The notes under the pieces were generated by a model. That model was not told the DNA's origin. It searched no databases and saw only the letters and a list, made by a program, of their open reading frames with translations. The position numbers and the translations under genes were made by a program. Shown here in pieces: positions 37,816 to 59,226 of a DNA stretch of 64,000 bases; the stretch's first letter is position 1; every line of letters starts with the position of its first letter. Origin of the DNA: Hysterium pulicare CBS 123377 (lineage: Eukaryota; Ascomycota; Dothideomycetes; Hysteriales; Hysteriaceae). The stretch is taken from NCBI GenBank assembly GCA_000467715.1, contig AJFK01000206.1, positions 62,001 to 126,000 on the forward strand. Direction: 5' to 3'.

Positions 37816-37834
37816 GGGGGAGGGAGGGGGAGGG
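37816..37834 (+). other. Candidate G-quadruplex in the 3' UTR of the GMC gene
   Basis: Four G-runs (5, 3, 5 and 3) separated by single A residues begin three bases after the TAA stop, on the transcript-sense strand. This fits the canonical G3+N1-7 pattern with minimal loops, which gives very stable structures in RNA. Whether it folds in vivo is not known. Confidence 0.55.
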
Positions 37835-38341: not shown

Positions 38342-39122
38342 ATGGCAGATAATACAAATCCACCATCGGGCCCGATTGTCGTACAGCCGACAGATTCTTG
38401 CTCCAACTTGCAGTTCCTCCCGCTCCTTGCTTTGACTTCCTCCACCTACCAAAGAACTTAGGCTTATGGTATACGACCGGTTGCCGTACTCTGTCAAACA
38501 CAAAGTCCCCGAGTGGGTCTATCAATCAAATTTGGACCCAGTTCCTGTAGCTTTCTTCGTAGAGAGCCGTCTCGAGTTGTCTCTTTTACAGACCTGCCGC
38601 GTTATTTATGACGAAGCTGGTCCCATCATACGACGTATGGACAAGGTTATTCCAAAGTCTCGGTTCTTTCTGCCACTTCTTGAAGATGAGAAATTTAACG
38701 AACGCGCCCGGTTCTATATGAAGTATGTAAGGTTCATTGGTCATTATACATTGAAACGAGAATTCCGCCTTGCCGGTGCGAAACTACAACCTCTTTTCGA
38801 TGCGGCGAAGGAAGCAGGAAGGCTGGACGTGGCTATTTATGTGCCGAATCGAATTAAGGACAAACAATCTACTCTTGGATTGCTACGGCGGCTGGTCGAC
38901 TGTCTCGAAGGGTACCGAATTGAAGAAATTGGTGTGAAGCTTTCAATTCATATCCAGAATCTAGAGATTAAAGGTGTGAAAGGTAACTTCAGTTACTCAC
39001 TTTTGGCGACAAATCAAGTAGAATCCTTTGGTTCCACATTTAGAGTTGCTAAGGAAATCTCGGTAGTGGACTGGGAAGCATACTGGGGAGTGGCTGACTT
39101 GGAATCAGTGGGATGGGACTGA
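38342..39122 (+). pseudogene. LPKELRLMVYE-family paralogue 3, N-terminal motif out of frame
   Basis: ATG 38342 opens MADNTNPPSGPIVVQPTDSC, but that frame stops at 38458-38460. The family motif is split: FDFLHLP is read in one frame and KELRLMVYDRLPYSVKHKV in another, with the change at CTACCAAAGAA near 38446. The main body from ATG 38466 to 39122 (218 residues) is continuous, with LSLLQTCRVIYDEAGPIIRR and the C-terminal VVDWEAYWGVADLESVGWD shared with paralogues 1 and 2. It may be a pseudogene, or it may be translated from ATG 38466 without the LPKELRL segment. The latter is also the only ATG start left to paralogue 1. It lies 5 kb downstream of paralogue 2 on the same strand, after the GMC gene. 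Confidence 0.6.
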
Positions 39123-39589: not shown

Positions 39590-40962
39590 TCAAGTGTCGG
39601 AATTGGACTGGTCGGAGGTATTAGTAGTATCAGTATCGGAAATATCAGAGGGATCGGAAGGCTCAGATGTATCAAAGTTCCCGGAATACTTCTCAACCAC
39701 CAAGTCATCCTCGACTTCTTTCAATTTCTGCTCCATGTTTTCCCCAGGCTGAATATCAACATCCCCGCGGTGACCGTGCAGTCCGAAAGTGGGAAAGATA
39801 ATAATGAGAGCGCCTCCACCCTCCAGTAGCCGGTGAAAAGTCAGATGTGTGAGGACTTTGCATGTACGAACAGTTCGTATCATTTCCGCCCAAGTAATCA
39901 AATCGTTGTTGAGGCACACGTGTCTCAAACTCAGTACGGTCAAGGCATTACTCCTCTTCTCGATGACTTTTTGCAGTAAATGATTTCGAAATTCAACTCT
40001 GTCTAGCTTGAGTTTGGTCAGGTGAGAAAGTCTTAGAGCCGACATATAATCTAGTTGATAGCGCGAATCTGCGAAGGAGCTGAATCTGATGTGCAATTCT
40101 TCTAGCTTTGGCATCAATTTCAGAAATTCGAGTAGGGTGTCGTCGCGGGTATCCCCTGTGTATCTTGTTAGGGTGGTAATAGCTAATGAGTGTTGAAAGA
40201 TTTAATTAATTGATTGATTGAATAGAAAGAAAGAGAGAGAGAGAGAGATGTAGATTCACGACGGGGCAGGCTTGGACAACCAGCTAAGCTGGTTCTAATA
40301 ACGAACCTATCATTGCTTGAACATGACTTACAAGTATCGGCGGAGCAGCACCAGATATTTAAGCGACGCATCCGACAAAGAAACTTTCGTCTAGCTTTAT
40401 GCATATCTAGCACATCGCGGAGAGTTTCGGGACTGATGCCCACCTCGGAGCCAAATCTGCCCCCCTGGACCTCAAACTCGGTGAGACGCAATTGGATCAC
40501 GGATGCAACCTTGAAAAGGACGCTAGCTGTGCCGGCCAAGGAAAGTCGCCCGTCAGCGCGGGCTTTGATGATAATAGACTTGAGGTTGGGTAATTTCGGA
40601 AGCGTAAGGGCGAGCATTGCTGACTCGCCCGCCATTTCGCCGATGTGACGGCCTGAAGAAAGATCAATGGTCCTGAAAATCAAGCGTTCGACTAGCGGCG
40701 CAAAGACTGGATGACGAGATACTGCCATGAGTCTTTCCAGCGAGTCATCGGTAAGATATACATAAAGTTGATTGAATACCGACTCAAATACCGGGCCAAG
40801 ACTGTTGCAGATAGTTTTGCAGGTAAGCATAAGGTTCAGGAGTCCCGAAGAGATAAGACGGTTGTCAATGGGATTATAAGCAGATCCCCGTTCTTCAACC
40901 AGCTGTTCAGCAATTTGCCATAAGATTTCGACCGGTGTATCGAGAATCGAGCGTTGAGTCAT
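39590..40962 (-). CDS. F-box/LRR-like protein, copy A
   Basis: The start is ATG 40962 (MTQRSILDTPVEILWQIAEQ), placed by alignment with copy B at 59226 (MDRPTIPDTPVEVLWQIIEE). The N-terminal helix pair is F-box-like and leads to LLNLMLTCKTICNSLGPVFE. The rest has LRR-like repeats: LERLMAVSRHPVFAPLVERL, LTLPKLPNLKSIIIKARADG, then after an intron of about 155 bp GDTRDDTLLEFLKLMPKLEE and LSHLTKLKLDRVEFRNHLLQ. An acidic Ser/Thr/Asp tail (SDISDTDTTNTSDQ) ends at 39590. The intron carries a (CT)n microsatellite near its 3' splice site. F-box proteins recruit substrates to SCF ubiquitin ligases; no target can be inferred here. Confidence 0.75.
40226..40248. repeat. (GA)n/(CT)n microsatellite inside an intron
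   Basis: A GAAAGAAAGAGAGAGAGAGA-type run lies in the intron of the minus-strand F-box/LRR-like gene. In the transcript it is a CU-rich tract just upstream of the 3' splice site, so length changes could affect splicing. Confidence 0.8.
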
Positions 40963-41548
40963 GTTCAAGTCTGGGCCGCACAGCAAGCCTGTAACGACTC
41001 TTCTCGACTGGATGAATACACAATTGAACTTGATGTTATGATTGTAGAGGTGTATCGGATCCTCAGAAGACGTTGGAGTTAAAACAAGACGGATTTCTCT
41101 TAATTCGAGTTAGAGCTGAGAACAAAATCTCATGGGTCCATCTTACCTCGAGGCCGGGAAACCATACGAAATTCCCTTCCTTGTTGATATTGTCGAGAGG
41201 CGAAGACGGGAAGGTCCGAGTTAAAAGTACAATCTCGGCTTAGTATTATTCCGGCCGGGCAGTGTCACACATCAGGCACCCGTAGGCAGCCGCACAATAG
41301 CGGCCACAAGAACAGTCGGCAAGGAACAATGTCGCACACATATCCTTCATGGCTTCGCACCCGAAATAAGGTGGATAGGTTTCGCTTGGCATTGAGCAGA
41401 GGAGGTCAAAGACCTGGACCTCGGAACCTGATCACGCTTACCGTTAGCTGCCTAGCGCCACCCTTTCCATCTCCACACCTCACATAGGGAACCACACATC
41501 CATCCTATCTCTTTTAACAGTCCCCTCAAGCCAAAATCAACCACTATA
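40963..41548. promoter_or_regulatory. Divergent promoter region, F-box/LRR A and transcription factor 1
   Basis: These 586 bp lie between divergent starts. I searched this stretch for an upstream exon with a cysteine cluster for transcription factor 1 and found none. No operator can be named. Confidence 0.45.
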
Positions 41549-43212
41549 ATGTTCTCATTTGAGCCCCCATCTAAACGCCGCCGACTCGATGATGGCCCTC
41601 CGCAAGTGCAGCATACGCCCAAGGATGCAGACACTTCCTTCAACTTCATGCTCGACGGCAGCGGCGCAGAATCCGTCTCTCCACTCACGAGCTGGAGTCT
41701 TGATGCCTTTCCGCTTCTGCAGGATCCCGCTTATCTAGCTTCACAGGAAGAGTTTCGGACGTTGCTGTTCTCGACGGCGCAGAGTGCGGCGCCCACGAGG
41801 AGGGCGAGTCCTGTTGGTAGTGCTGAGGTAGGGGATGTGGGCCTTGGTGATGGAGGTGGGGTTAGGATTGGGAGTGGGAGTAGCAGATTGCCTAAGGATC
41901 ACATGAGGCAGGTCCTGGGGAAGGGGAGGAGATTGGAGTATTTCAAAGGGTATGTGGGACAGGTTGCGCCGTGGGTAAGTGAGAGCAGTGGTCACGTGAC
42001 ACATGCTCAAAGCTGGAGTGCAAATGATGGGAACTTAGACTAATTCCATGACGTAGCTGGACATGTTCGACTGTCGTCGGGTTTTCGGAATCCAACTACC
42101 TGCTCATGCTCGAAAATGTCCCCCGCTCCTCTACGCTATTCTTGCGCTGTCCGCGCGACAAGTCGAACAAAAAGAAGGCAAACAGGATTCATTCGACAGC
42201 TTGGAGCTGTACCAGGAGGCAATACGGCTCCTTACACCACTTCTTCAAGTCCGAGATCCAGATGTGATTCCAATATGCGTCATCCTATGTTGCATGGAGA
42301 TGATGTCTGCAAGTGAACAAGATTGGCGGAAGCATCTTGAAGGATGCGCGGCCCTCTTCGACTCTTTTGGCGTCAACGGCTTCAGTGATCCATTATTACG
42401 AGGGGTGTTTTGGTGCTACGCTCGAATGGGTCAGTACTTCGTATCCTATTTTGAAGAACGGAAAGGGTCACTAACCCGATTAAGATCTTTGTGGTGCATT
42501 GATGTCCGATGGTACACAGAGTACACTGATAGAGCCGTCTAAATGGCTGCCTCTAGGAGCGCCCGAAGATGAGGCGCGGCAGCTATTCCACCACTCGAAC
42601 TCGGCTGATATGCATGCCAACTACGCCGTATATCTTTGTGCTCGAACGTGCGAGCTCATCTCGGATAGGACCAAGTATGTTGAGCTTGGAGAGGAAAATG
42701 GCTGCACAGCCGATGTTTTCTTGGACAGGTGGAAGAGGCTCTGGGAAGAACTCCAATGCTGGCAGAGCGATCGGCCAAAGGAGCTGGTACCAGTGCAAAC
42801 TATCGAGTCCAAGCCGTTTCCGTACATACTTTTCGTACACTGGGCGGCAATATCTTCGAACCAGCTCCATCACACGTCTTGTATTCTTCTTCTCAACATG
42901 ATTCCAAAGTCAATGGTTGCGGAATTCGGACGTTCAGATCTTACTTTGGCACATGCGCGAAGGATTTGCGGAATCTCCTTGACGAATCCTCATGAAGGAT
43001 GTTTAAACAATGCCATACAGCCGTTGTGGATTGCAGGTCGGTTGTTCAGCCACAGATCTGAGCATGCCTTACTGGTCAAGCTCATAAAAGGTATCGAGAA
43101 TTTGACGGGATGGGCAATGAGCTGGCGACTCCGAGACCTCGAGCGTACATGGGGCTACAAGATTCGGAGGGTCCGCGCAGGTGTAGTGGATGAACTGACA
43201 TCCACAGCCTAA
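41549..43212 (+). CDS. Fungal transcription factor-domain protein without zinc cluster
   Basis: The start is ATG 41549 (MFSFEPPSKRRRLDDGPPQV), with SKRRR as a likely nuclear signal. Three exons: 41549-41974, 42057 to about 42428, and about 42485 to 43212. The splice gives GYVGQVAPWLDMFDCRRVFG, the same junction as in its neighbour (EIAPWLDMYDMKQEFG). The helical body (PPLLYAILALSARQVEQKEG, MMSASEQDWRKHLEGCAALF, HWAAISSNQLHHTSCILLLN) matches the fungal-specific transcription factor domain of the PF11951 type. There is no Cys6 zinc cluster at the N-terminus. The gene converges on a related zinc-cluster factor, with 36 bp between stops. It may act as a partner or competitor of that factor; this is inference. 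Confidence 0.82.
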
Positions 43213-43248
43213 GCCGTCGTCGTGGGCTCGGTAGCTACCGGGACATGA

Positions 43249-45535
43249 TTATCCGTAACCATAAGCAGCCCAGCTATCTTGTAATGTAGACAACGCATCT
43301 CTAATGTCGAATGCCGTCAGTATTCTGATACGCTCAAATGCATCGAGCAGCGTCCGTTGTTGAGATTCGTGAGTCATCCGCCGAGCTGCCACAAGTAAAG
43401 ATGCAATCAAGCATGGATCCCAGTTCTCGCGGCGGTCATTATTCAGTGCAATGCCGCACAATCTCTCCGCATGCCATAATGGTGAGATGCAGGATGGGCC
43501 GCCTGTAATTCGTAATGTCCTTGGCTTGTGAAGCAGAAGAATAAGCATCGCTGTATGGTACAGTTGATTGCCAGATATACCAGCTCCATTTGTGAAGACA
43601 ATTGTCGGGAAAGCACTGTCATCCGGTGGTTCGAGCTCCACTGCGGGCTGAAATTCTTCCGGGCGCGACTTAAACCACACTTCGAGCTCCCGGAGAAGCG
43701 CACTCCATCTGTCGACTAGATTCCCTCCAGCTGGCGGGGCTGTTGTAGCATAGGCAACATTGACAGCAAAGATACAAAGGAACAGCGCCTTTTGCGCATA
43801 TTGGAACAATCTTTCGGTGATTTCGTTCATCGATTGCTCATGACTAATATCGTGTATTGAGCTTCGTGTGGACTCTTCTCCGAACAAGGCTGCGCTTAGC
43901 TCTGGAATGGACCAAAAGTTAGCTGATACTCAATCGATGTTCGATCTCGCCACGCCCATCATACAATTTACAAAGAACATTTGCTCACCTAGTCTTGCTA
44001 CAAGACAGTAAGTCGACGTCTGCAATCGAGACTGACATGAAGATATAGTCAGCCAGATATTATACGGAATGGCTGAACTGATTGCTGAGTGATCTTGCCA
44101 CGCCCCTGATATGTCTGGCAAGAATCGTTGCAACATCCGAAGTAACGCTAAGACCGTTCTGATCAATGTGTCTTCCGCCAGCACCTCTTCGGTCTTTGAA
44201 AGCTGCAAGAAATGTTGGGCCTCGGCGCCGTTCGAGCTCCCAGTAGTCAAAGCATCAAGCGAGTCCGCGGAGAGAGCTAGCAATGCTAAGCGCACGGCTC
44301 TAGATTCCATGGCCAATTGTGGTATCTTAATCCCAAATTCCTGCTTCATGTCGTACATATCCAGCTATCATAATGTCAATTAAGAAAACCAGTTTCAGGG
44401 CGAGATGTACTGACCCATGGAGCTATTTCATATCGGTAGTGCCTGAGGAGATGAAGGCCGCGTTCGCCCGAAAGACTTTCTCTTTCTCGGTCTAAATACC
44501 GGTCATCCGCGTTTGAAATTAAGGAAGAACCAGTCCATCGCATACCACGTGGCGACGTTTCTGATGTATCCTGAACATTCCGCCTTGAGTGAGGGGACGC
44601 TTGCGTTTCCTCGCCTCTCAGTAGAGGTGGGTCAATGATCGATGAAGCTACATCACTAGTAGTATGGTTCCTATTTCCCAGAGCAAGTAAGCCATCCAAC
44701 GCAGACTCGTAGCGGTCGCCATCCATCATTGAGATACTGCCGTCCGTAGGTTCTATGCGAACGTTTTGCTGGGCATTTTGGACGTCATACGGTGCCCATA
44801 GGTCCAGATCGAGGATGTTTCTGCGATCTTCGATACCCAAAGTCTCTTCTAAGCTTAGTTCTAGGTGCCCATTCTCAGGCAAAACATCTTGATTGGAGGG
44901 TACTTCTTGGAGAGGATGCATTTGATTGGGTGCTTGGGCCATGTCTTGACCAACATGGCTGCTGTTCGCTACGAAAGTTGTGTCTGATTGAGGAGATGGA
45001 AGTGTCTGTATTTCTGAAGATTCTGCCCCCTCCAAATGCTCCTCTTGGAGCTCATCTCGACTGAGGTCATCGTCATTAGACGATGAGGGAACCTCCGTAT
45101 TCTGCCCGTTGATTACATCCCGACGAGGTGCCTCGTTGATGAACTATGATATTCATGAGTAACTGATGCAAATGGGCATTTAGACACCACCAATCATTTC
45201 GCCAATAGCGATAGCACACAAACTGCAACTTACACTAAGATTGATGTATTGCGGTGTCCGTGCCGACGATGATGGCTCGGATGTAAGAACAGTGTACGTG
45301 TTCCTCTCGAGGAAAGTCAGACCGGAGGCATACTTGCATTCGAAGTCCTTGGAGATGCAATTGCGGCATCTTGGTTTGCTTTCATCGCCTACCGTTGTCA
45401 TTGATGAGTCGTCTGATCCTGGAGACTCTGCATGCTCCACTTACACTTCCGCCTTCTAGCACGACACTTGAGACACCCTGTCCTGGCTCGCTTCTTGCGC
45501 GTTACAGGAGGCTCGCCGGTATTCTGCTCAAGCAT
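43249..45535 (-). CDS. Zn(II)2Cys6 transcription factor
   Basis: The start is ATG 45535 (MLEQNTGEPPVTRKKRARTG). Exon 1 (45535-45445) and exon 2 (from 45388) join across a 56-bp intron to build a perfect zinc cluster, CLKCRARRRKC then DESKPRCRNC and ISKDFEC (C-x2-C-x6-C-x6-C-x2-C-x6-C). The intron splits the cluster. After INLS an intron leads to FINEAPRRDVINGQNTEVPS, a long acidic linker, then YEIAPW|LDMYDMKQEFGIKIPQ and the helical regulatory domain of the PF11951 type, including FTNGAGISGNQLYHTAMLIL, and the end DSWAAYGYG at 43249. It is the nearest candidate regulator for the adjacent catabolic genes. Such factors usually bind CGG-type half sites as dimers. The binding site and inducer are unknown. 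Confidence 0.88.
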
Positions 45536-45934
45536 AGATGTGTGGAATCGAGAGATGAATGTCGAGGTCCAGAAGTTGCGCCAAGCTTTCTGCGCTTCTC
45601 GCTGCCAATTCTGACGGGGTTAAGGGTGGAGATGGGCGCCGAGTGCCGAGGTTGTGCCATGGAGTGGTGTGATTGGTGGAGGTTGTAGCACAGAGATTCT
45701 TATTAATATTTTGGACTTCATAATTTGCGAGTCTCAACGTTGTTCTCGAAGATACGTCCAATCATCCGTACTGTCAAGTCCAAATAAGGGCTAGTCATTC
45801 ATGAATGCTTCTATCAGGCGCACAATTCACTGGGTTATGGCTTTGCAATCAATTGGTATCGTAAGATAAATAATGTTTTACTTTTACATTAAAGATACTA
45901 TAGACGGCATTGAACTCTCGCCGGATTCCCAGGC
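45536..45934. other. Intergenic, transcription factor 2 start to AKR end
   Basis: These 399 bp hold the promoter of the minus-strand zinc-cluster factor and the 3' UTR of the minus-strand aldo-keto reductase. A plus-strand frame over this area is antisense to the factor's first exon and looks noncoding. Confidence 0.45.
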
Positions 45935-47029
45935 CTAAGCGAAGATCCTCAATGGCTTGTGCAGATAGAATCCAGGGTCATTGAATCTTAACCCCTTGTC
46001 CAGAGCACTGATCGCTTCAATCTCTTCTTTCTTTAGCTCAAAGTCCGTAACCTCCAAGTTCTGCTGTAGTCTGTTGACGTTGTTTGATTTCGGGATAACT
46101 GCAATGTTCCTCTGCGTCGCCCACCTCAACAGCACCTGAGCGGGAGTCTTCCCTACGCGCTCCGCGGCCTTCTTCACGACATCCTGGTCAAATAGAAGCG
46201 TAAGATTCTGCGCTCGCTTTCGGAACGCGGGTGGCAGCTCCAAGAACGATTGTGGGCCAAATGAGGAGTACGCGGTAACGATGATGTTGTTCTCTTGCGC
46301 AAGCTCAACGAGTTCGGGCTGTACTAGGTAAGGATGGTGCTCAATTTGGAGAGATGAGATGGGGTGGCGGGCGTAGCGTTCGATGTCGTAGATGGTCTGG
46401 CCTTGGGCATTCGAGATACCAATGGATTTAGCGATGCCTGAATCGACGACTTCCTCGAGGGTTTGCCAGGTTTCTTGGAGGGGAACCTTGGCCGTGCGAA
46501 TCTCCTTTTGCTCGGCATCCAGCCACCATCCCTAAAGTCATGGTTGTAAGACTATGTTCTCCCATATGAAGACAATCATAATGGACTTACTGGGTATCTC
46601 AGCTTCTCTGGCTCAATGTACTCCAGCGCGACGGGGAAGTGAATCAGGTACAGATCGATATAACCCAGTCCCCAAGCCTCGTTCTGAGACTTCGCGAATT
46701 GCAGTGCATGCTCTCGTTTGTGGTAGTTGTTCCAAAGCTTTGTGGTTACAAAGACGTCTTCACGCTTGACGAGACCTTCGTCAATAGCACGCTTGATACC
46801 CTGACCGGCCTCTTTTTCATTCTGGTAGTCATACGCTCCATCGAAGAGACGGTAGCCGACTTTGATAGCCTGTGAGCGGCAATTAGGTATACCATCTAGA
46901 ATGTTTAGATGACGGGAGACGTACATTATAAACAGTGTCCGCAGCTTGATCGGCAGGAACCTTCCACAGACCGAAGCCTACGAGGGGCATCTTGTGCCCC
47001 GAGGCCAAAGTTACAGTGTCGACGACCAT
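45935..47029 (-). CDS. Aldo-keto reductase, D-xylose reductase type
   Basis: Three exons (47029-46925, 46869-46591, 46531-45935) encode 326 residues, the usual xylose reductase length. The catalytic tetrad is complete: Asp45 in [14 protein letters not shown], Tyr50, Lys79 in TTKLWNNYH and His112 in [10 protein letters not shown]. The cofactor motif [14 protein letters not shown] has Lys, Ser, Asn and Arg in the NADP/NAD-contacting positions of fungal xylose reductases. It reduces aldoses such as D-xylose or L-arabinose to the alditols in the cytosol. The neighbouring polyol dehydrogenase is on the same strand upstream. A galacturonate- or glyceraldehyde-reducing role is less likely from the GFGLWKVP opening but not excluded. 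Confidence 0.92.
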
Positions 47030-47734
47030 TTTGATTACAAGAGAGAAACTTGAAGTCAATAAAAGGTGGACAGTCCTTGATGTAGAGGGATGTAATTCCG
47101 GGTCGAAGAGCGTTTGGGTGGCAGCACGAGAAAGAATTTGGACAAGCCAAACAAAAAACAATCACGTCTGTAGAACCGAAAATCCACCTAGCTCAAGCAA
47201 AATCACATCATAGAGGGGCAGCATCATTTCTCCGTGACTTTTGCCTCCCCCCTCAAATTGTGGATATCGTTCCCGATGCGGAAAATTTAGACGCTTCACG
47301 TTGAGCCTCGGGAGAGCCAAATGCGGTCATTCCCCTTGGTCCTTCTGCAAGACGCAAATTCTAACGAGGAGATAGATGTCGTATTGGAACTAGAAGTCTG
47401 ATCTTAGTATTAACAGTTTCATAAAGAGAACTCTTGAGAATTGTCAGTCGTCGCGTCTTTCTTTATACTAAAATATTCGAGATTTCTGTCCTCGCACAAT
47501 CGGCCGAATTAGAGCCGAGAGCGACAAGCAACGCGTTGAAGAGTTCACAAATTCTTTCGCCATCTGTCGTGCTATCAGCATGAAAGATGCATTCATCAGA
47601 TAATGGATTTGTCTTTGCATCACTTTGGAATATCGAAGCAGTTTGGAACATCGAAGTATGAGCGGTACTACGCCGTCTCAACCTCGTTCTGGAATGCATC
47701 GACTCCAAGACTACATTCGAAAATCGATAAATCT
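47030..47734. promoter_or_regulatory. Intergenic, AKR promoter
   Basis: These 705 bp hold the promoter of the aldo-keto reductase and the 3' end of the polyol dehydrogenase, both on the minus strand. The short frame 47738-47463 minus has no family features and starts from a non-ATG codon or weak context. Confidence 0.4.
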
Positions 47735-49096
47735 TCATAATGTTGCATCTACATCATCAACTATCTGTACTTTGATGCTACCTTTGGTGATATCCGAGCA
47801 CAGTTGAAGAGCCTCGAGTCCTTTCTCTAGCGGAAATTCATGGGAGACGAGCTTCTTCAGATCGAGGATGCCTCCGCTAAGACATTGTATACCAGCAGGC
47901 CAAGTATCGCGGTAGCGGTTGATGAATTTCAGGTCAATCTACATGTTATTTGTCAGCTTACGTCTTTGCAACGCGACTGTCAGATGGCTTACCTCTGCCA
48001 AAGAAATATGCATGAATGGTAGGTTATTCATGATCGCTCTTCCAACCCCAATTACCATGACGGTCCCGCCTCTCCGCACCGCGTATGCAGCAGTACATAC
48101 ACTGCTCTCAACTCCTGTACATTCTAATACTGTCCTTGGTGCAAAATACTCGTCTTCATCGGCATCTACGCTAAACAGCTTACGAATCGCCTTTGCATTT
48201 CCTTCTGCATCCAAAGTTCGATTGATTTGATACGCGTGACAACTCGGAACGAAGTCTTTCGCAAACGCTAGACGCTGAGGCTCTAGATCCGTAATAACGA
48301 GCGGATGCGCACCTGAAGCACGTGCTGCAGCCAGCGCAATGAGACCGATTGGGCCTGCACCGCAAATTAAGGCGCCATGCCCGAGGTTCAATCCCGCTCT
48401 TTCAATGCCATGCATGACAACAGACAACGGCTCGAGGAGCGCTCCTTCCGCATAACTGACATTATCAGGAAGCTTATGTAGCCATTTCGCAGGATGTATC
48501 TTGTATCTTTGTAATGTACCGTGGTATGGATAGACTCCAGCGAATTGAACGTCTTCGCACAGGTTATATCGACCGTCTCTGCAAAGAAAGCAATTGTTGC
48601 AGGGTACGCCAGGCTCGATCGCCACTCTATCACCTAGATCACGATTATTCAGTACTGAGCGATGGAATCAAGATGCGTGAATTCGTAGCGCATACCTGGC
48701 TTCAGATTTGTTACGCCTTCTCCACATCTCAACACAACGCCAGCAGCTTCATGTCCCAGTATACAGTCGCCCTCTACAACGAGCGAACCAATGGAGCCGG
48801 TTTTCCAGAAATGTATGTCAGACCTAGATAGTTATATCAGATACCAAGACTCAGTATACAATGCATAGCTTAACGCACCCGCATATGCCCGTCGTCTTGA
48901 TATGTACGAGTGCTTCTCCCCGTTTTGGAGCGTACACTGGAGCGTCGACCTGTTTTATATGGTGATCGGCCGTGACTTGTATAGAAGGATTTGGCAACGG
49001 GGGTGAGAGTGTGGAGGGAGGGACAGTCTTTGTCTTCAGGAGAGGTGCAGGTTCCAGGCTGTCTGCAGCGCTGTCAAGTAAAGCAGGAGGTGCCAT
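47735..49096 (-). CDS. Zinc polyol dehydrogenase (L-arabinitol/sorbitol dehydrogenase family)
   Basis: The chosen start is ATG 49096 (MAPPALLDSAADSLEPAPLL). ATG 49156 (MTISKESSREG) is also in frame, and the frame stays open to 49579. TTGICGSDIHFWKTGSIG supplies catalytic-zinc Cys72 and GHEAAG its His. CNNCFLCRDGRYNLC is the intact four-Cys structural-zinc loop, GAGPIGLIALAAARASGA the NAD fold, and INRYRDTWPAGIQCLSGGIL the segment typical of L-arabinitol/sorbitol dehydrogenases (YRxTWP). Three introns were placed; for example, GICG|SDIHF and SLAE|IDLKF both splice in frame. The N-terminus is about 20 residues longer than usual and Pro-rich. It oxidises a polyol to a ketose with NAD. It is divergent from the synthase gene, sharing its promoter region. 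Confidence 0.9.
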
Positions 49097-49680
49097 AATG
49101 GCTGGATTGTGTGAAGTATGGGAGCCTTCGCGAGACGATTCCTTAGATATTGTCATGCTGTTCCCATGTGCTCTCGGAGAATCTTGATACGGCAAAGGAT
49201 GTCCCGGGACGAACCGCTCGAGCATGCACGTGTAGGCGGCATGGTGGCGTGGCGAGATGGAAGGGCGTTCCTGGATGGTTAGTAGAGGGATGGGTGGATG
49301 ATGGTCGGCAATTGAGGTCCCCCGAACTGGTGTTGGAGATGATGTTCTTGGCGAGTCATTGAACATCCCGAAAAGGAAGGCATAGGCACCACCAGCATCG
49401 TCAATCGACCCTCTCAACCCTGTGGAACTCCACACTCGCCACACCAAACCTTGAGAGATCCAATTGCCTACAATTACCGTTTCCGGCCAACCGCACGCCT
49501 CTCCCTTAAGCAGTCCATGATCAAACCGTTGAAGGATAACGTGAGGGGCCATTTTCGGGCATCCCGGAAAACAGTACATGTTATAGATTCTGCGGTCTCT
49601 GTGAGTTATGTAGCCAAAGACTGCATTGTATTTGGATTGCTTTTCATCAATTCATCTGCTTATAATCCTAATATCTGACA
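49097..49680. promoter_or_regulatory. Shared divergent promoter, polyol dehydrogenase / DHA synthase
   Basis: These 584 bp separate two divergent catabolic genes, so both can respond to one regulator. One sequence at 49428-49433 (CTCCAC) fits the degenerate CreA carbon-repression consensus on the minus strand; such hits are common by chance. No CGG-spaced-CCG palindrome stood out. Confidence 0.45.
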
Positions 49681-51979
49681 ATGGCGCCAGGTCTCACACT
49701 TCCCAATGGCGTATCTACAGATGCTTCCCCAGCAGTCAAAGGAAAGACGGCACTGAGCGAGATCGTCAAAGAGGATGTATCCTCTTCACAGCCGAGATCC
49801 TCATCGAAGGAGCACGACATTGTACTCCGAACCTTTCGGTTGCTGATTGCGGATTTGTGTCAGCAATTCAATGGCGGACATCCAGGGTATGAAGTTATGA
49901 AAACTACGTTTCTAGCATTGTCTCTAATACTTCACAGTGGAGCCATTGGCATGGCAGCAATCGGCGTTGCTTTGTGGAAATACGTGATGCGATATGCACC
50001 GCATACCCCTAATTACTTTAACCGAGACCGCTTCGTTCTCTCCAATGGCCATACTTGTCTGTTCCAGTACACCTTCCTCCATCTCACGGGTTATAAAGCT
50101 ATGACTCTTGATCAGCTCAAGTCATACCATTCCGAACGAGTAGACGCGCTATGCCCAGGACACCCTGAAATCGAGCATGAGGGTATCGAAGTCACGACCG
50201 GGCCACTTGGACAAGGTGTTGCGAACGCAGTAGGCCTTGCAATTGCCACTAAAAACCTTTCAGCAAACTTCAACAAACCGGGATTCAACGTAGTCAATAA
50301 TCATACTTGGTGTATGATTGGAGATGCATGCCTCCAAGAGGGAGTTGCGCTGGAAGCAATCTCCTTTGCTGGACATTTGAAACTCAACAACCTTACTATC
50401 ATCTACGATAACAACCAAGTTACTTGCGATGGGTCTGTTGATTTGACTAATACTGAAGATGTCGACGCCAAAATGCGGGCTTGCGGCTGGGAGGTCATTG
50501 ATATTGAGGATGGGTGCTTCGATGTCGAAGGAATAATTGCGGCATTAGAACAAGCGCGACAATCTGGAGACCAGCCCACTTTCATTAATGTGAAAACGGT
50601 CATTGGACTTGGAAGCGCGGTAGCTGGAGAAGCTGCTGCTCACGGGGCTGCTTTTGGAGCTAAGGATGTGGGAGAGATGAAACGGGCTTATGGATTTAAT
50701 CCGGACGAGCAGTTTGTGGTCGGTGAAACTGTGAGAGACTTCTTCAAGGATCTACCAGCACGAGGGGAAGAGTTAGTGGTACAATGGAAGACGCTCGTCG
50801 ATGACTATGCCCACCAGTATCCTGAGCTAGGAGCAGAATTTCGAGCACGTGTTCGTGGTGAACTGCCATCCAACTGGAAGGAGTTGATTCCGAAGTCATT
50901 CCCGGAAAAGCCGACAGCAACGCGAGCATCTTCTGGTCTAGTATTCAATCCTATTGCTAAGGATGTCAAATCGTTTATGGTTGGAACCGCGGATCTCTCT
51001 CCCTCGGTCAACATGATCTGGCCCGGCAAGATCGACTTCCAACACGTAAGTAGTCAATCCCAAGCGATTTTCCTCTGCTTACATCGAAACTGTATAGGCC
51101 GATCTCAAGACGACTTGCGGCACTACTGGAAACTACTCTGGGAGATACATACACTATGGTGTTCGTGAGCATGCCATGTGCGCCATATCGAACGGTCTTG
51201 CGGCCTTCTCGCGAAACACCTTTATCCCTGTCACCTCATCCTTCTTCATGTTCTACCTGTACGCCGCTCCCGCCGTACGCATGGGTGCTCTCCAACAGCT
51301 TCAAGTCATTCACGCGGCTACTCACGACTCCATTGGCATGGGAGAAGATGGCCCGACTCACCAGCCCATTGAGCTCGCCAATTTGTACCGAGCAATGCCG
51401 AACCTCCTTTACATCCGACCTGGAGATAGTGAAGAGACGGCTGGTGCTTGGACTGTAGCCATTGAAGCTAAAAACACGCCAACTATCATATCCACTTCGC
51501 GACAGGTTCTCCCTCAACTCACACAAACAAAGCGGGAGGGCGTTGCGAAAGGAGCATACATCCTCCAGGAGGTCGATGACTCTGCCCCCGCAGATATTAC
51601 CATACTAGGTGTCGGGGCCGAACTTTCATTCGCATTGGCTGTTGCTGATGAATTGAAGAAGACAAAGAGCGTACGAGCACGCCTTGTCAGCTTTCCATGT
51701 CAGCGACTCTTCGAAAGGCAGTCAAAAGAGTATAAACGTGGGGTTTTGCAGCGGCATAAGGGCGTACCTGCTGTGGTGATCGAGCCATATGCACCCAATG
51801 GATGGGAGAGGTACGCGGATGCTGCAGTGTGCATTACGCGCTTTGGGCACAGTTTGCCAGGCAAGGCTGCTTACAAGTACTTTGGGTTTGACATCGATAC
51901 GTTGACATCCAAGATTGGTGGATATCTAGAAAGTGTGCGGGCTGATCCTGACTTGCAGCATGAGTTTGTTGAGCTGTAG
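49681..51979 (+). CDS. Dihydroxyacetone synthase-type transketolase
   Basis: Three exons (49681-49886, 49938-51045, 51098-51979) encode 731 residues. The thiamine-diphosphate signatures are FNGGHPGGAIGMAAIG, the GDACLQEG motif with YDNNQVTCDG, and IHYGVREHAMCAISNGLAAF with the catalytic Glu near residue 462. YFNRDRFVLSNGHTCLFQY, IEHEGIEVTTGPLGQGVANA and FFMFYLYAAPAVRMGALQQL are closer to dihydroxyacetone synthases of methylotrophic yeasts than to ordinary fungal transketolases. The enzyme transfers a C2 ketol from xylulose 5-phosphate to formaldehyde, or more generally to a short aldehyde. The C-terminus is DPDLQHEFVEL, with no peroxisomal SKL-like signal, so it should be cytosolic. The kinase that would use its product follows downstream on the same strand. 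Confidence 0.92.
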
Positions 51980-52605
51980 CTGATGATCAGGATTGGATTT
52001 TCTCATAGTTTTCATTTGCTAGTATTATCTACGTTAGAAGGCTTACTGGATTACAATATACCATATATAACATACACCATGTTGAGTTGCACGTATCAAT
52101 TCCTAGTAAGTTATGCGAAAGAAGTTGTACAACCGCTTCTGGAGGATAGCTCGCGAGGAAGAAATCCAAAGTGGCTTATTGGCAAATTCCAAAAGCTGAT
52201 TCTAGGCACTAGCCTCGCTGAAAGTGTCGTACGAGATTCTCTCTCCACTCTAAGAAATGTTTGTGCCGCCGCCGGAGCTCGTGATCATAATGACGAAGAC
52301 GTAGAAGCCTTTCCCAATTCGGAGATGTTAAGCACCACTTCACGATCCGACGAACGACGAATCTCAACGACGACTAACGAAGATTTAGGCTTCCAAATTT
52401 GATGGGGTATATGGTAAATAGAATGTGAGAGGGCGAGCAACACTTTGCGTTGGCTCTACCTTTATTCCGAGTTGTGAGACAGTGAATCGGCCTCTCCAAA
52501 AGTTCGAGTGAGTACCCACGCATATAAACATTCAAGTAATACTTTCTAAACTCCCTTGCCCAGTTTGAGGTCGATAGGTCTCTTTATAGTAGCCATCTCA
52601 CAACA
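51980..52605. other. Intergenic, DHA synthase to DHA kinase
   Basis: This 626-bp region holds a terminator side and the kinase promoter. An open frame at 51983-52402 plus (139 codons) starts three bases after the synthase stop. It has no family features and no ATG context of note, so it is not called as a gene. Confidence 0.4.
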
Positions 52606-54437
52606 ATGCGAACCAAACACTTCGTGAACGACCCCAGCCACCTCGTTAAAACATCTCTACACTCCCTTTCCATCACCAATCCCTCCGTCCAAATAGACCA
52701 CAACAACAAGATCGTCTATCGACGGGATTCCAAGCAAAGCAACCATGTCCACATCATCTCCGGCGGCGGCTCAGGCCACGAACCGTCATTCGGAGCCTTC
52801 GTTGGAAAAGGCCTCTTGACAGCATCAGTAGCCGGCACGATCTTCGCATCGCCATCTTCGCGCCAGATCCTAGCAGCCATCGAGAGATTCCAATCGGAGC
52901 AAGGCCTTCTCGTCACTGTCATGAATTACACGGGAGACGTCCTGAACTTCGGTGTCGCGGTGGAAAAGGCACGAGCTCGAACTCCTGGCCTCCCGATTCG
53001 AATGCTCGTTGTTGGAGACGATGTTGGAGTGCCTGCGTCGCAGTCGGGGAAGGTTGGGAGGAGAGGTATTGCGGGCACTGTGCTTGTTCATAAGATCACC
53101 GGTGCTGCCGCGGCTGCTGGCCGCTCCCTTGACGACGTGTTCAAGATTGGTCAGCTCGTCAGCCAGAATCTCGTCAGTATAGGAGCGAGCTTGGATAAGG
53201 TCCATATTCCGGGGCAAAGTGCACATGAGGAAGCTGGCGGGTTAGGGGGTGATGAAATTGAGCTTGGCATGGGTATTCACAATGAACGAGGAAGTGGGAG
53301 GCGGAAGGGGGAGCAAGCGCAACTTCCAGCTCTTATACGAGAGATGTTGGATACGATGCTGCGTGGTCGGAGCATTGAGAAGGCAGTCATGCTGGTGAAT
53401 AATCTCGGTGGAGTGAGCGTTTTGGAACTCGGTGCCGTTGTCTCGGAAGCGACAGCGCAACTGCAAGCGGATTACCTGATCGTTCCCCGCAGGACATACG
53501 CTGGAACTTTCATGTCTAGTCTAGATGGTGCAGGCTTCTCGATCAGCATTCTTGACCTCTCGAGCACGGGGGAAGAACAAGACATACTCGACCTCCTTGA
53601 CGCACCGAGCGAAGCATTGGGATGGAACGCCCCCATTTCAACAAGCACTTGGGAAACTCGATACATGAGTGAGACGGAGAGCAAGACGGTGAATGGGATA
53701 CATACGGTGACAAGCCCAACACTAGAAGCCGCCGCTCAAGTCAAAACAGCTCTGAAACATCTCATACCAGCATTGAATTCCGCCATCGCCGCAGAACCGG
53801 AAGTGACTAAGTTTGATAACATCGTCGGAGACGGAGACTGTGGCACGACAATGAAGCGAGGAGCTGAAGGTAAGTAATCTCCCGCATTCGATCGACCATG
53901 CGATATACATCTAACCGACACTCCTCAGGCATACTAGAAGCAATTTCCACTCAACCCGCATCATCGATTCCCCACCTCCTGGAAATAATCACTTCGACTA
54001 TCGAAACAACCATGGACGGTACATCCGGCGCTCTCTACTCCATCTTCCTAAACGCACTCACTGGCTTCGCAAAACGGAGAGATGCCGACATAGCCGTGAA
54101 CTACGATATCGCATTTTGGACCGCAGCTCTCCAATCTGCATCCTCGACGCTATCTCAGTATACGCCAGCGAAGGTCGGCGATCGCACTCTCATGGATGCT
54201 TTAGTCCCTTTCATCGAGACGTTGGAGAGGACGGCAAAAGTGGGCAAGGCTGCCAGTGCTGCGGTAGATGGTGCGGAGAGAACGAAGGATATGAAGGCGA
54301 GTCTTGGGAGAGCGGTATATGTGGGCGGTGAAAACGAGTGGAGGGGGAAGATTCCTGACCCGGGTGCTTGGGGGTTGGCTTGCTTTTTCAAGGGGTTGGC
54401 TGGAGATATGGGGGAGAATGGGGAGCTAATGGATTGA
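52606..54437 (+). CDS. DAK1: Dihydroxyacetone kinase (DhaK-DhaL fusion type)
   Basis: Two exons (52606-53869, 53929-54437) give 590 residues. The N-terminal DhaK domain has GGGSGHEP at residues 53-60 and GMGIHNERG with His225, the residue that binds the ketone of the substrate covalently. The C-terminal DhaL domain has FDNIVGDGDCGTTMKRGAEG near residue 410, whose Asp residues bind Mg-ATP, and MDGTSGALYSIFLNAL. The enzyme phosphorylates dihydroxyacetone, and in some fungi a close relative phosphorylates L-erythrulose. There is no peroxisomal signal (ends GELMD). Next to the synthase it forms the ketose-forming and ketose-trapping half of the cluster. Confidence 0.94.
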
Positions 54438-55619
54438 GTAGAAGCTATGAATCAGGAGATTTTCCCCAAGCATCGTGTTCATTCTTTCTTCTGAATGATG
54501 CAGGAGTGTATAACTCCTATCTTCTTGTAGCTAATAGTTACGGTTCTTCGGTAACGTTCGATGTTGGATAGATGAAATGAAGTCTCTTCAAATTGTCCAA
54601 ACTTTCACTCAATTATACAAGATGAATGGTGAACTCCGCTAGAAAACTTACGATACATAAACAACGAGTACTGTTGTCGACTGCTTCTGGCTCATCTGCT
54701 GGCAGACCACGTGACTTTATGTTGTAAGTAATAGCCCCGTCCAACTTGAAGATTGCTCTATGTGTCTAACAACTATTACATGTCGCGTTTTCTTGAGTAG
54801 GTGATGCAGACCCCTCTGTTTGTAGAAGTCGAGCAGTCGGAAATCGATGGGATCTCCCCGCTCTACCGTGCGTCGTGACATGGAATTCGAAACACCACGT
54901 GGATGAACACGGATCAGCAAGAGTGGGGAAGAAGACTAGACGACTGCTATAGTATGTTTATTAACTAGGTGCGTTACGAGTCTTTAGGCATGGTTGGCGA
55001 CGAGATGAAAAACTCAGGGTTAGAAAACAGCGCTAAGCCGGGGAAACGTCGGATGAGAGGGCGGTAAAGTCTTCCATATCCGGCAGATGTAGGCTCCTGA
55101 AACTTCAGTGAGCGCCAGCAGAGCCTGGAATATGTGATAGTATCTGATAGCCGCCTTTACCCCGTTCGATTTTGGCGTGATTGTACCTGTAACCCCAACT
55201 TCAGAACGGCGCCGATCGGGCAACTTTTAGTTGCAAAGCCGTTTTCCACCCACCTGATCTACTTCCTCTACGGCGGCATCGATGAGTTCTTGTGATTTCC
55301 TTTTTCGTAGACTGCCGGATTTGACGATACCTGTTGCATGCATCGTCGTCCATGCCTCACGTTGTCTGGGGATCGTGCCGTTCTCCACACCGGGGACTCC
55401 ACCGAATAAACCCAGTCTAGCGACTCGGTGCACGCAAACATGTTCCGGGATATGATTCGGGTCCAAGCATGGGCGAACTTCTCCACATGCTACTTAAAGT
55501 ATTGAGCGACCCAGCATTCTGGGACACCTTTCATTTGCCTCTGACATTGCCTGTCGAAACGATATTTTGCCTCTGGTTGGGGATCCACTGGGGATAAAAC
55601 TCCAATACTTCTACATACC
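54438..55619. other. Intergenic, DHA kinase to sugar porter
   Basis: These 1.18 kb have no supported gene; minus-strand frames at 54920-54717, 55223-55020 and 55466-55227 have no family features. Two CACGTG boxes lie at 54709-54714 and 54896-54901, possible bHLH-type sites but also expected by chance about once per 4 kb. Confidence 0.4.
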
Positions 55620-57426
55620 ATGGATAGAAGCGCTTCTGTGACGTCGGCTGATGTCCGGACACAAGTCGCATACAAGAACAGATGGAGGAATTTGTTGCAT
55701 AACCCGAAGCTTCTTGTCATTGCATTCTTCGCGTCGTACGTTGCATGCATCTGATTCAACCCTCTCAATTGCATTGCTGATAGCGATTGACTAGTTTCGG
55801 TGGTTTCGAATATGGCTATCAACAAGGTGTGCTGGGCCAATCTCTCGTCATGTACCGCTTCACAAACAACTTCCCTTCCGTCGTCGAATCATCCAGCGCA
55901 ACAGGTTGGTTGACCTCTGTTCTGCAACTCGGCGGCATCATCGGCTCGCTCTCAGCCGGTGTCTTCGGCGAGGTCTTCTCGAGAAAGTACACCATGTTCT
56001 CCGCATGCTGCTGGGTCGTTCTCGGTAGCTACCTCTACTGCGGTGCTTCCTACCACAAGCCCCAACTCCTCTATGCCGGCCGCTTCTTCACCGGCTTGGG
56101 CGTCGGCACGTTCTCTGGTGTGGGACCTCTCTACAACGCCGAACTCTCGTCTCCGGAGCTCCGTGGTCTTCTGGTCTCCTTCTATCAATTCGCTACGATT
56201 CTCGGCATCATGCTCTCCTTCTGGATCGGCTACGGAAGTAATCATCTCGGTGGCACTGGCGTCACGCAGTCCGATCTGGCATGGCGACTCCCTTCCATCA
56301 TTCAAGGCATCCCAGCCGCCATATTGGCCCTGGGAATCTGGTGGCTACCATTTTCTCCACGCTGGTTGGTAAAGAAGGGCCGGGACGAGAAGGCGTTACA
56401 AACGCTGAGCTATTTGCGGAAACTGCCGATTGAGCACGAACTGATCCAGATCGAGTACAAAGAGATAAAAGCCGAGTGTCTATTCGAAGAACGCGCCTTC
56501 GCAAAAGCCTTCCCGCAACTCGCCGCCAAGGAGCAGCAGAACGTCTGGATCCGCGAGTTCGCGCAATACTACAACATCGTGCGCACGTGGGACAACTTCA
56601 AGCGCGTCTCCACCGCCTGGCTCGTCATGTTCTTCCAGCAATGGTCCGGCATCGACGCCATCATCTACTACGCCTCCAACGTCTTCGTGAGTCTGGGCTT
56701 AACGGGCGGCACGCAAGCTCTACTAGCTACAGGCGTCACGGGAGTCGTTTTCTTCGTCAGCACGCTGCCTGCTATGGCTGTCATCGATAAGGTTGGTCGC
56801 AAACCCATGTTACTAGTCGGCTCGGCCGTCATGTGGGCATCAATGATCATCGCCGGTATCGTGGTCGCCAAATTCCGACATGACTGGGCTGCACACGCCA
56901 ATGCGGGCTGGACAGCTGTCGCCTTTATTTGGATCTATGTGGGCGCTTTTGGGGCGACTTGGGGTCCTGCATCCTGGACACTCGTTTCAGAGATATTCCC
57001 TCTCTCCATTCGAGCAAAAGGCGCTTCCATTGGCGCGTCTAGTAACTGGGTACGTGCTTCTCCCTTCGCTACTTTTTTGCTCAATATACTAACGAACCAC
57101 CCCAGGTCAACAACTTCGCCGTCGCCTTCTTCGTGCCCCCCATGTTCGCCGCCTGGGCCTGGGGCACCTACATCTTCTTCTCCGTCTTCCTCGCCGCCGG
57201 CATCGTATGGGTGTACTTCTGCCTCCCCGAGACCAAGGGCGCGACGCTGGAGGAAATGGACCGCGTCTTCAAGAGCAGGACGGGCGAGGCGGATGCGATT
57301 TTGCTGGCGGAAGCGAGGAGGGATATCGGGCTTTCGATGGTGCTGGAGGCGGATGCGCTTAAGGCTATTGAGCATGGGGAGCAGTTGGGTGAGAAACACA
57401 CGAATCATGTTGAGAGGGCTGTGTAG
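55620..57426 (+). CDS. MFS sugar porter (cluster transporter)
   Basis: Three exons (55620-55735, 55795-57049, 57106-57426) encode about 563 residues with 12 predicted membrane segments. The start is ATG 55620 (MDRSASVTSADVRTQVAYKN). Sugar-porter signatures are present: FGGFEYGYQQGVLGQSLVM in TM1, GRFFTGLGVGTFSGVGPLYN, FSPRWLVKKGRDEKAL, FQQWSGIDAIIYYASNVF, DKVGRKPML and CLPETKGATLEEMDRVFKSR. The intron before VNNFAVAFFVPPMF has a perfect TACTAAC branch point. It should import a mono- or disaccharide or polyol at the plasma membrane. It follows the kinase on the same strand and completes the cluster; its substrate would define the pathway. Confidence 0.92.
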
Positions 57427-58046: not shown

Positions 58047-59226
58047 TCAAGCGGATGCGAGGTCATTGGCAACGTTTCTAAGCTTCTCCGCCATATTGTC
58101 GTTTCTCCTGATAACAACCTGCCTCAAAGCGCGACCGGAACACCGAAACTGGATGTCTCTTCCTTTCTCGGAGACACGATAGAGAGTCAGTTCGCGAAGC
58201 TTGCCGGACTGAAGGGTTCGAATCACATCGACCCATGTTTTGGTCCGCTTGCCGCTTAGCTGGACATTCCTTAATGCCACCGTACGTAAATGATCCATGT
58301 GGCGTTGGAGGAAAGCATTCAGCCCGTTCTCGGTGAATTCAACTCCATCGAGTCTGAGTTTAGTAAGGTTGGGGAAGGACAAGGAATCCATGCCGTTCAG
58401 CATACCAGACGAGTGTCTGAAAGAATCAACGCCGATGCTCAAGTCTTCTAGCAGTGGCATCACGTTAAGAAATTCACGCAGCGCGCGGGTGGTCATTCGC
58501 GGAGCTACATAACTGTTTAGCATGCTGCTAAGAACATCTGTTCGGGTGCGACTCACGAGTTGGCCTGAAGTTAATCCAGATGTGCAAGCGCCGCATTTGG
58601 TCGAGGAAGTTGCCGTTTTTCTCATGTAACTTCACGGCGTTGCGCAGACAAAATACACTAATGCCGATGTTGGATCCATACTGGCCTCCCCGAATTACGA
58701 AATCCGTGAGCCGATGTTGTGTCAATGCTACAACCTCCAGAATGGCCCCGGTGACGTATCCGGTTGAGTTAGGCGTGTCATAGAAACGTCCGTCCTTGTG
58801 GGCATCAATTGTGACAGACTTGAGCTTCGGAAATCCTTGCACTGCAGCATGCAACTTTGCTGAAGCCCCAGGCATAGGCTTCTGTTTACTGAGATCAGGA
58901 CGAGTGTTGATGACCAGTCGTTCAACCGTTGCCGCGTATTTTGGATGGCGAGACAGTCTCACGAGAGACTCGAGAGAGCCGTCATTTATCCAAGGGCCGT
59001 CATGCGTCAGAGAAACGTGACATTGACGAAAAGACACGAGTCGAAGTTTCCAGAAAATTGTTTTGCACGTAAGCATGAAGTTGAGAATGTTTGAGGAGAG
59101 AATCGAATTGTCGGTTTCGACGTGATCAGTTTGGACTTCATCAGATTGGTCATCGTCTTGAAGTAGTTCCTCAATGATCTGCCAAAGAACCTCAACTGGC
59201 GTATCGGGAATCGTAGGACGATCCAT
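58047..59226 (-). CDS. F-box/LRR-like protein, copy B
   Basis: The start is ATG 59226 (MDRPTIPDTPVEVLWQIIEE). It is colinear with copy A at 40962: LNFMLTCKTIFWKLRLVSF, LESLVRLSRHPKYAATVERL, VQGFPKLKSVTIDAHKDGRF and HRLTDFVIRGGQYGSNIGIS. An intron of about 52 bp (near 58559-58508) lies at the matching place and joins HIWINFRPT to PPRMTTRALREFLNVMPLLE. LSFPNLTKLRLDGVEFTENG then aligns with copy A's LSHLTKLKLDRVEFRNHLLQ. About 375 residues. The acidic tail of copy A is absent. The two copies share strand and gene structure and sit on either side of the sugar-catabolic cluster. Confidence 0.75.

What the first reader, a model, noticed from the sequence alone, without database searches (positions are those of the whole stretch)
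41549..57426. Candidate catabolic gene cluster: two regulators, AKR, polyol dehydrogenase, DHA synthase, DHA kinase, sugar porter
Seven consecutive genes in 16 kb include five that form a chemically sensible route: uptake, aldose to polyol, polyol to ketose, C2 transfer to a short aldehyde, and phosphorylation of the resulting triulose or tetrulose. Polyol dehydrogenase and synthase share a divergent promoter. No pentulokinase is present, which is unusual for a pentose route and leaves room for a non-standard pathway. I know of no described fungal cluster with this exact set.
Basis: partly seen in the sequence, partly recalled or inferred. Interest (0 to 1): 0.75.

Follow-up and report, generated by a model that had tools for sequence, protein, structure and literature searches.

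The report
Fungal sugar and aldehyde catabolic cluster
Seven neighbouring fungal genes look like a small sugar-eating kit (two switches, a sugar importer, two sugar-converting enzymes, a two-carbon-moving enzyme and a kinase), probably acting together, although what they eat has not been shown.

Summary
Seven genes can be modelled intact at the stated coordinates, with a divergent promoter (584 bp if the chosen PDH start is right) between polyol dehydrogenase (PDH) and DHA synthase. The genome is 37.2 Mb and evidently fungal. Domain calls hold, with refinements. Regulator REG2 has a Zn2Cys6 domain. REG1 shows none and is its tail-to-tail paralogue.

PDH is LAD-like (52% to N. crassa LAD) but has L and N at the two published specificity positions, unlike LAD, XDH and SDH. 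The likely core LAD lies elsewhere (73%). The synthase is a transketolase without PTS1 that keeps all four (recalled) phosphate-binding residues. It therefore most likely uses a phosphorylated donor such as xylulose 5-phosphate, from an unlinked xylulokinase-like gene.

Best reading: cytosolic, polyol/pentose-supplied transfer of C2 units to a short aldehyde, then triulose phosphorylation by DAK. Confidence is 0.35: substrates, co-expression and conservation of gene order could not be tested, because no other fungal genome was on offer. Promoters share no clear motif. The ten capped paper listings showed no paper describing this set. New variant of a known kind; interest 0.45.

The parts
41549..43212 (+). 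REG1: Fungal_trans_2 protein, 508 aa, no Zn2Cys6 cluster found; exons 41549-41974, 42057-42429, 42485-43212 (introns chosen among many open alternatives)
   Evidence: its best match elsewhere in the genome search is REG2
43249..45535 (-). REG2: Zn2Cys6 + Fungal_trans_2 regulator, 667 aa; exons 45445-45535, 45234-45388, 44415-45143, 43989-44364, 43249-43901 (introns 2 and 4 chosen among several open alternatives)
45935..47029 (-). AKR: xylose-reductase-type aldo-keto reductase, 326 aa; exons 46925-47029, 46591-46869, 45935-46531
47735..49096 (-). PDH: LAD-like zinc polyol dehydrogenase with altered substrate pocket, 396 aa; exons 48879-49096, 48696-48823, 47993-48633, 47735-47938; an upstream in-frame start at 49579 is possible
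49097..49680 (.). Divergent promoter shared by PDH and DHAS, 584 bp with the chosen PDH start
   Evidence: gene models
49681..51979 (+). DHAS: transketolase of dihydroxyacetone-synthase-like type, 731 aa, C-terminus EFVEL; exons 49681-49886, 49938-51045, 51098-51979
52606..54437 (+). DAK: ATP-type dihydroxyacetone kinase, Dak1+Dak2, 590 aa; exons 52606-53869, 53929-54437
55620..57426 (+). MFS: sugar porter family transporter, 563 aa; exons 55620-55735, 55795-57049, 57106-57426

Best explanation
A fungal catabolic gene cluster built from diverged paralogues of core pentose/polyol genes. Shown: seven intact gene models of the named families, altered pocket residues in PDH, kept catalytic and phosphate-binding residues in DHAS, and no PTS1. 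Inferred: the porter takes up a sugar or polyol; the XR-type AKR and LAD-like PDH convert aldose to polyol to ketose; an unlinked kinase (xylulokinase-like gene on C126) makes xylulose 5-phosphate; the cytosolic DHAS moves a C2 unit from it to a short aldehyde (formaldehyde, with an alcohol oxidase-like gene on C461, or glycolaldehyde), giving DHA or erythrulose plus glyceraldehyde 3-phosphate; DAK phosphorylates the triulose (or tetrulose). REG2, perhaps with its paralogue REG1, controls the set.
For: DHAS keeps H30, H69, H103, H263, R359, S386, E418, H469, D477, H481 and R528 of yeast TKL1; in all, 24 of the 30 positions printed are the same. DAK passes the glycerone kinase equivalog cut-off, 659.6 vs 574.95 bits. 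AKR is 53.2% and 50.8% identical to two yeast xylose/aldose reductases. PDH scores highest against L-arabinitol 4-dehydrogenase among PDB chains. Xylulokinase-like C126 and FGGY pentulose kinase C353 exist. In O. polymorpha, das1 deletion severely damages xylose fermentation, and a PTS1-less Das1 restores xylose growth of a TKL1-limited strain better than the peroxisomal form (passages of PMC6052537). REG2 is REG1's best match elsewhere in the genome search. The grouping is improbable by chance.
Against: No clear shared promoter motif. No expression data and no other fungal genome to test gene order. The kinase and alcohol oxidase it needs are unlinked. The PDH substrate is unknown: its pocket differs from LAD, XDH and SDH at the two published positions, so its product need not be xylulose. 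Six of the 30 transketolase positions printed differ from yeast (94, 155, 188, 191, 370, 434), and DHAS falls just under the bacterial transketolase equivalog cut-off, 673.9 vs 682.25. In O. polymorpha das1 deletion mutants still grow normally on xylose, and ethanol production was better rescued by the peroxisomal than the cytosolic form. Sugar porters are common in this genome (84 matching pieces, three of them the gene itself). DHAS acceptor specificity cannot be read from sequence here.
Confidence: 0.35

Rival explanations
1. Extra pentose capacity: DHAS is simply a second cytosolic transketolase for xylulose 5-P plus ribose 5-P or erythrose 4-P, and DAK clears DHA or glyceraldehyde; no short-aldehyde assimilation is involved.
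For: Donor and catalytic residues checked are kept; cytosolic Das1 can partly stand in for Tkl1; A. niger TktA and TktC are listed side by side in the pentose phosphate pathway (passage).
Against: A canonical transketolase exists (C426, 65% to yeast TKL1), so a second would be redundant; it gives no reason for DAK next door.
Confidence: 0.2
2. Tetritol/tetrulose pathway, as in the Yarrowia erythritol cluster: PDH oxidises a C4 polyol, DAK is an erythrulose kinase, and DHAS/AKR handle erythrulose or tetroses.
For: Yarrowia clusters a DAK-type erythrulose kinase with a polyol dehydrogenase and regulator EUF1 (passages). The PDH pocket is altered. A Verticillium paper lists RpiB, DAK and TPI with consecutive accession numbers (passage).
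Against: The isomerases such a route needs are not among the seven genes, and the only PF02502 (RpiB) match in the genome is on C54, with no DAK or dehydrogenase of the MDR type recognised by eye in the 3.4 kb fetched there. It does not need a transketolase.
Confidence: 0.18
3. One reading: unphosphorylated ketose from PDH is cleaved directly by DHAS, so phosphorylation happens only at the triulose/tetrulose stage.
For: No pentulokinase in the cluster; DAK is adjacent; transketolases are known to accept some unphosphorylated donors (recalled).
Against: All four donor-phosphate ligands (role recalled) are conserved in DHAS and in its paralogue; pentulokinase-type genes exist elsewhere.
Confidence: 0.08
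4. Neighbours without a common pathway: an island of sugar-metabolism genes that act in different routes.
For: No clear shared promoter motif; sugar porters, AKRs and zinc dehydrogenases have many matches here.
Against: Two regulators related to each other, a divergent promoter, and a low chance of DHAS, DAK, LAD-like and XR-like genes together.
Confidence: 0.19

Closest known systems
Erythritol utilization cluster of Yarrowia lipolytica (EUF1, EYK1, EYD1, EYI1; passages of PMC5992420)
   Same: Regulator, polyol dehydrogenase and DAK-type kinase clustered on one chromosome
   Different: Here no RpiB or TPI-type isomerase in the cluster; transketolase, XR-type AKR and sugar porter instead
Methylotrophic yeast xylulose monophosphate pathway (AOX, DAS, DAK; passages of PMC6052537 and PMC7347521)
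   Same: DHAS-like transketolase plus DAK; an AOX-like gene exists in the genome
   Different: DHAS has no PTS1, is clustered with pentose/polyol-type enzymes, and AOX is unlinked; methanol growth unknown
Fungal pentose catabolic and oxidoreductive galactose pathways (LadA, LadB and aldose reductase in passages of PMC9781776; XyrA, LarA, XkiA recalled)
   Same: XR-type AKR and LAD-family dehydrogenase
   Different: No kinase for pentuloses in the cluster; PDH pocket unlike LAD; the likely core LAD, an XR-type AKR and a xylulokinase-like gene are on other contigs. No LadB (galactitol dehydrogenase) sequence was available for comparison
Aspergillus niger TktC, EC 2.2.1.3 (passage of PMC9781776)
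   Same: Filamentous-fungal transketolase given the EC number of DHA synthase
   Different: Not compared by sequence; no cluster context in the passage seen

Membership tests
Transketolase family | ThDP, pyrimidine and C-terminal domains; conserved catalytic residues | tested here: met
   Pfam 422, 160 and 102 bits; the 11 key residues named are kept, 24 of 30 positions printed identical to yeast; roles recalled. TIGR00232 just under cut-off, 673.9 vs 682.25
Dihydroxyacetone synthase (formaldehyde transketolase) | Sequence subgroup separate from canonical transketolase | tested here: inconclusive
   62% to C483 paralogue, 43.5% to C426 and 44.7% to yeast TKL1; no authenticated DHAS sequence could be compared, so the DHAS label rests on recall
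Dihydroxyacetone synthase (formaldehyde transketolase) | Peroxisomal targeting (PTS1), as in methylotrophic yeasts | tested here: not met
   C-terminus EFVEL in both paralogues; PTS1 consensus recalled
Dihydroxyacetone synthase (formaldehyde transketolase) | Formaldehyde as acceptor | not testable with these tools
   needs enzyme assay
L-arabitol dehydrogenase (LAD) | Zn-site and catalytic residues of the SDH/LAD family | tested here: met
   C44, H69, E70, E155, R298, Y299 (human SDH numbering) kept
L-arabitol dehydrogenase (LAD) | M70 and Y318 (A. niger LadA) near the substrate | tested here: not met
   PDH has L and N there; C114 has M and Y
Xylitol/sorbitol dehydrogenase | F at both of these positions (F59 and F297 of human SDH; F62 and F302 of A. 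niger XdhA, from the paper) | tested here: not met
   PDH has L and N; no XDH sequence was aligned
Xylose reductase-type AKR | Similarity to characterised XRs; catalytic D, Y, K, H | tested here: met
   53.2% and 50.8% to 5ZCI and 1JEZ; motifs [19 protein letters not shown] aligned; tetrad recalled
ATP-dependent DHA kinase | Dak1+Dak2 fusion above curated cut-offs | tested here: met
   333.5 and 151 bits in Pfam; TIGR02361 659.6 vs 574.95
Yarrowia-type erythritol cluster | RpiB-type isomerase in the cluster | tested here: not met
   single PF02502 match in the genome, on C54
Yarrowia-type erythritol cluster | Second TPI in the cluster | tested here: not met
   none of the seven cluster proteins is TPI; no genome-wide TPI search was made
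Methanol-assimilating XuMP pathway | Alcohol oxidase gene in the genome | tested here: met
Fungal metabolic gene cluster | Conserved gene order or co-expression | not testable with these tools
   no other fungal genome or expression data on offer

The most novel reading that the evidence does not exclude
A pentulokinase-free sugar route: the PDH with its unusual pocket makes a ketose that the PTS1-less DHAS splits without prior phosphorylation, and ATP is spent only at the triulose/tetrulose stage by DAK, under its own regulator pair. A weaker form is a cytosolic C1/C2-aldehyde assimilation module in a filamentous fungus fed by hemicellulose polyols.
Probability: 0.1. Interest if true: 0.8.

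Novelty: new variant of a known kind. Interest (0 to 1): 0.45.

Why it matters
If the cluster works as read, a filamentous fungus would link plant-derived pentoses or polyols to capture of toxic short aldehydes such as formaldehyde from pectin methanol, in the cytosol instead of the peroxisome. [quoted passage not shown] It would also give a native module of interest for engineering, and a polyol dehydrogenase of unknown specificity that is quick to test.

Tried and rejected
Promoter motifs: the patterns GGCTAR, GGNTAAA, SYGGRG and the CGG dyads were only counted, without shuffles. SYGGRG occurs ten times in the 1.2-kb DAK-MFS region, and CGG-N7-CGG occurs in 3 of 7 regions. 7- to 10-mers were compared with 30 resamples and only one 7-mer stood out. 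DNA repeats around the cluster: two weak direct pairs and one weak inverted pair. A second copy of the cluster elsewhere: the C548 PDH relic stands alone, with no match of the other six proteins at E 1e-5 in the 19.9 kb read there. The DHAS paralogue (C483) has no DAK, PDH or AKR match in the 19.8 kb read, only an MFS match. The C378 DAK lies about 650 bp from its contig end, so its upstream neighbours are unknown. Structure prediction was not used: spliced proteins are not read letter for letter from the DNA, and single exons would say little. A phylogeny with LadA, LadB, XdhA and true DHAS was not possible for lack of reference sequences; no tree was built.

Literature: ten searches. Their listings were capped (for example 25 of 5,550 papers, 20 of 769, 25 of 114), and I saw titles and the starts of abstracts. 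None of the listed papers shows a fungal cluster with this set. I saw passages only of PMC9781776, PMC10778863, PMC13158570, PMC5992420, PMC2731777, PMC6052537 and PMC7347521. The library holds open-licence papers only.
Full report
Setting. The window is bases 62001-126000 of contig C164 (152,798 bp) of a 37.2-Mb genome in 596 contigs. Intron structure and Zn2Cys6/Fungal_trans_2 regulators mark it as fungal. The search tools say this genome has no relatives here, so everything comparative below is within this genome or against PDB chains and profile libraries.

Genes. Spliced models with GT-AG introns and no internal stop account for seven genes between 41549 and 57426. REG2 (43249-45535, minus) carries Zn2Cys6 and a weak Fungal_trans_2 match (26.4 bits, cut-off 21). 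REG1 (41549-43212, plus) carries Fungal_trans_2. Pfam finds no Zn2Cys6 in it, and none was seen in the three frames of 40900-41600. The regex cannot see a motif split by an intron, as REG2's is. The two genes end 36 bp apart, tail to tail, and align over residues 20-489 of REG1. In the genome search with REG1 the best matches after itself are REG2 (36%) and then three others at 27-34%. Splice choices were made among open alternatives for REG1, REG2 introns 2 and 4, both AKR introns and PDH intron 2. The PDH start was taken at 49096, although its frame is open to an ATG at 49579.

Synthase. The best PDB matches are yeast transketolases (588 bits). Identity is 44.7% to yeast TKL1, 43.5% to the genome's own canonical transketolase on C426 (itself 65.3% to yeast; composite with one stretch missing), and 62.0% to a second such protein on C483. 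Both C483 and window proteins end in EFVEL, which is no PTS1. Of 30 yeast TKL1 positions printed, 24 are identical in the window protein, among them H30, H69, H103, H263, R359, S386, E418, H469, D477, H481 and R528, which are also kept in the C483 protein. Positions 94, 155, 188, 191, 370 and 434 differ. The assignment of R359, S386, H469 and R528 to donor-phosphate binding is recalled, not from a call. This makes a phosphorylated donor likely and argues against direct cleavage of a free ketulose, without excluding it. The DHAS label rests on recalled resemblance and on the EC number given to A. niger TktC (passage); no authenticated DHAS sequence was available. NCBIfam's bacterial transketolase equivalog is just missed (673.9 vs 682.25 bits).

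Polyol dehydrogenase. The best PDB match is N. crassa L-arabinitol 4-dehydrogenase. PDH is 52.3% identical to it over 321 columns, while a C114 piece is 73.1% over 309 columns and is the likely core LAD. Zn and catalytic positions are kept. Rutten et al. (PMC2731777, passages) name M70 and Y318 of LadA (F59 and F297 of human SDH, F62 and F302 of XdhA) as the positions near the substrate where LAD differs from XDH and SDH. PDH has L and N there. It also has V at human SDH T121 (pocket role recalled), a T in all four proteins compared. In all, 17 columns are identical in the four others and different in PDH. So it fails the LAD test and the XDH/SDH test alike, and its substrate is open. A relative of the same gene lies alone on C548. 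It is 82% identical over residues 160-236. It looks broken: a stop in the first piece, a change of frame near residue 160 and no match beyond 236; further stops in the joined alignment may be intronic.

AKR, DAK, porter. AKR is 53.2% and 50.8% identical to two yeast xylose/aldose reductases, and 52.0% to a C11 piece. No NCBIfam equivalog over cut-off fits AKR or PDH. DAK has Dak1 and Dak2, passes the glycerone kinase equivalog cut-off and is 43.6% identical to PDB 26VK. The genome search shows three Dak2 genes, and the window one is nearest to C378 (58.8, 48.4 and 49.0% over three pieces). The porter passes TIGR00879. Sugar porters are numerous here (84 matching pieces, three of them this gene; 77 of 125 candidates scored), so its presence alone is weak evidence.

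What is missing from the cluster is elsewhere. FGGY_C has four matches, three over cut-off: C353 (pentulose kinase subfamily TIGR01315, over its cut-off), C556 (best match glycerol kinase, under the equivalog cut-off in the partial ORF given) and C126 (only XylB matched, 81.3 bits, under its cut-off, so called xylulokinase-like). The fourth, C438, is under the Pfam cut-off, and its ORF looks like an Hsp70 (recalled). An alcohol-oxidase-like gene on C461 matches in four pieces at 70-81%; the other 20 matches in that search are at 30-44% (probe from memory). RpiB has one match, on C54.

Is it more than chance? With 12,000 genes assumed and family sizes judged, the expected number of transketolase genes with a DAK, a LAD-like and an XR-like gene within three genes is 2e-8. 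With a crude correction for other possible combinations it is 0.016. Both are after-the-fact and depend on guesses. Against a regulon, only one 7-mer (5 of 6 regions, 0.13 expected) stands out among 7- to 10-mers; the known-site patterns were counted without a control.

Mechanism. Most likely (0.35): uptake, aldose to polyol to ketose, phosphorylation by an unlinked kinase, C2 transfer by cytosolic DHAS to a short aldehyde, and phosphorylation of the triulose by DAK. Only enzyme families and residues are shown; every flux step is inferred. The closest experimental support is from O. polymorpha (PMC6052537, passages). There das1 deletion severely damages xylose fermentation, and a PTS1-less Das1 restores xylose growth of a TKL1-limited strain better than the peroxisomal form. 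Against: das1 deletion mutants still grow normally on xylose, and ethanol production was better rescued by the peroxisomal form.

Verdict. Observation confirmed; interpretation partly supported; a plausible and apparently undescribed fungal catabolic cluster, to the extent that ten capped searches of an open-access library can say so (listed under Tried and rejected). Its most interesting testable points are the specificity of PDH and whether DHAS needs a phosphorylated donor.

Noticed in passing
window 39590-40986 (-) and 58047-59226 (-): Two paralogous F-box/LRR-like genes (40.8% identity over 223 aa in one piece, 34.8% over 141 aa in another) flank the cluster on both sides in the same orientation; the F-box label is recalled, no Pfam family above cut-off.
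   Followed up: partly
window 60106-61582 (-): A second sugar-porter-like gene just beyond the cluster; only its 60106-60603 piece was tested (PF00083, 132.8 bits). It could be a cluster member.
   Followed up: partly
L047:9234-9985 (C548): Solitary, apparently broken relative of PDH, 82% identical over residues 160-236.
   Followed up: partly
L050 (C483), DHAS paralogue about 20-2238, MFS-like ORFs 2873-4680: The second DHAS-like gene also has a sugar-porter-type gene immediately downstream in the same direction.
   Followed up: partly
window 36158-37813 (+) and 34456-35217 (+): A GMC oxidoreductase and an O-methyltransferase fragment a few kb upstream of the cluster; not taken as part of it.
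   Followed up: no
window 31176-39122: Three ORFs (31176, 32492, 38466) ending in a W-E-x-x-W-G-V/I-A-D/E-L type motif, one with a sub-threshold 2EXR match: perhaps a local gene family.
   Followed up: no
C461:14394-15094 of the genome: Alcohol (methanol) oxidase-like gene, matching a recalled Pichia AOX1 probe at 70-81% in four pieces.
   Followed up: partly
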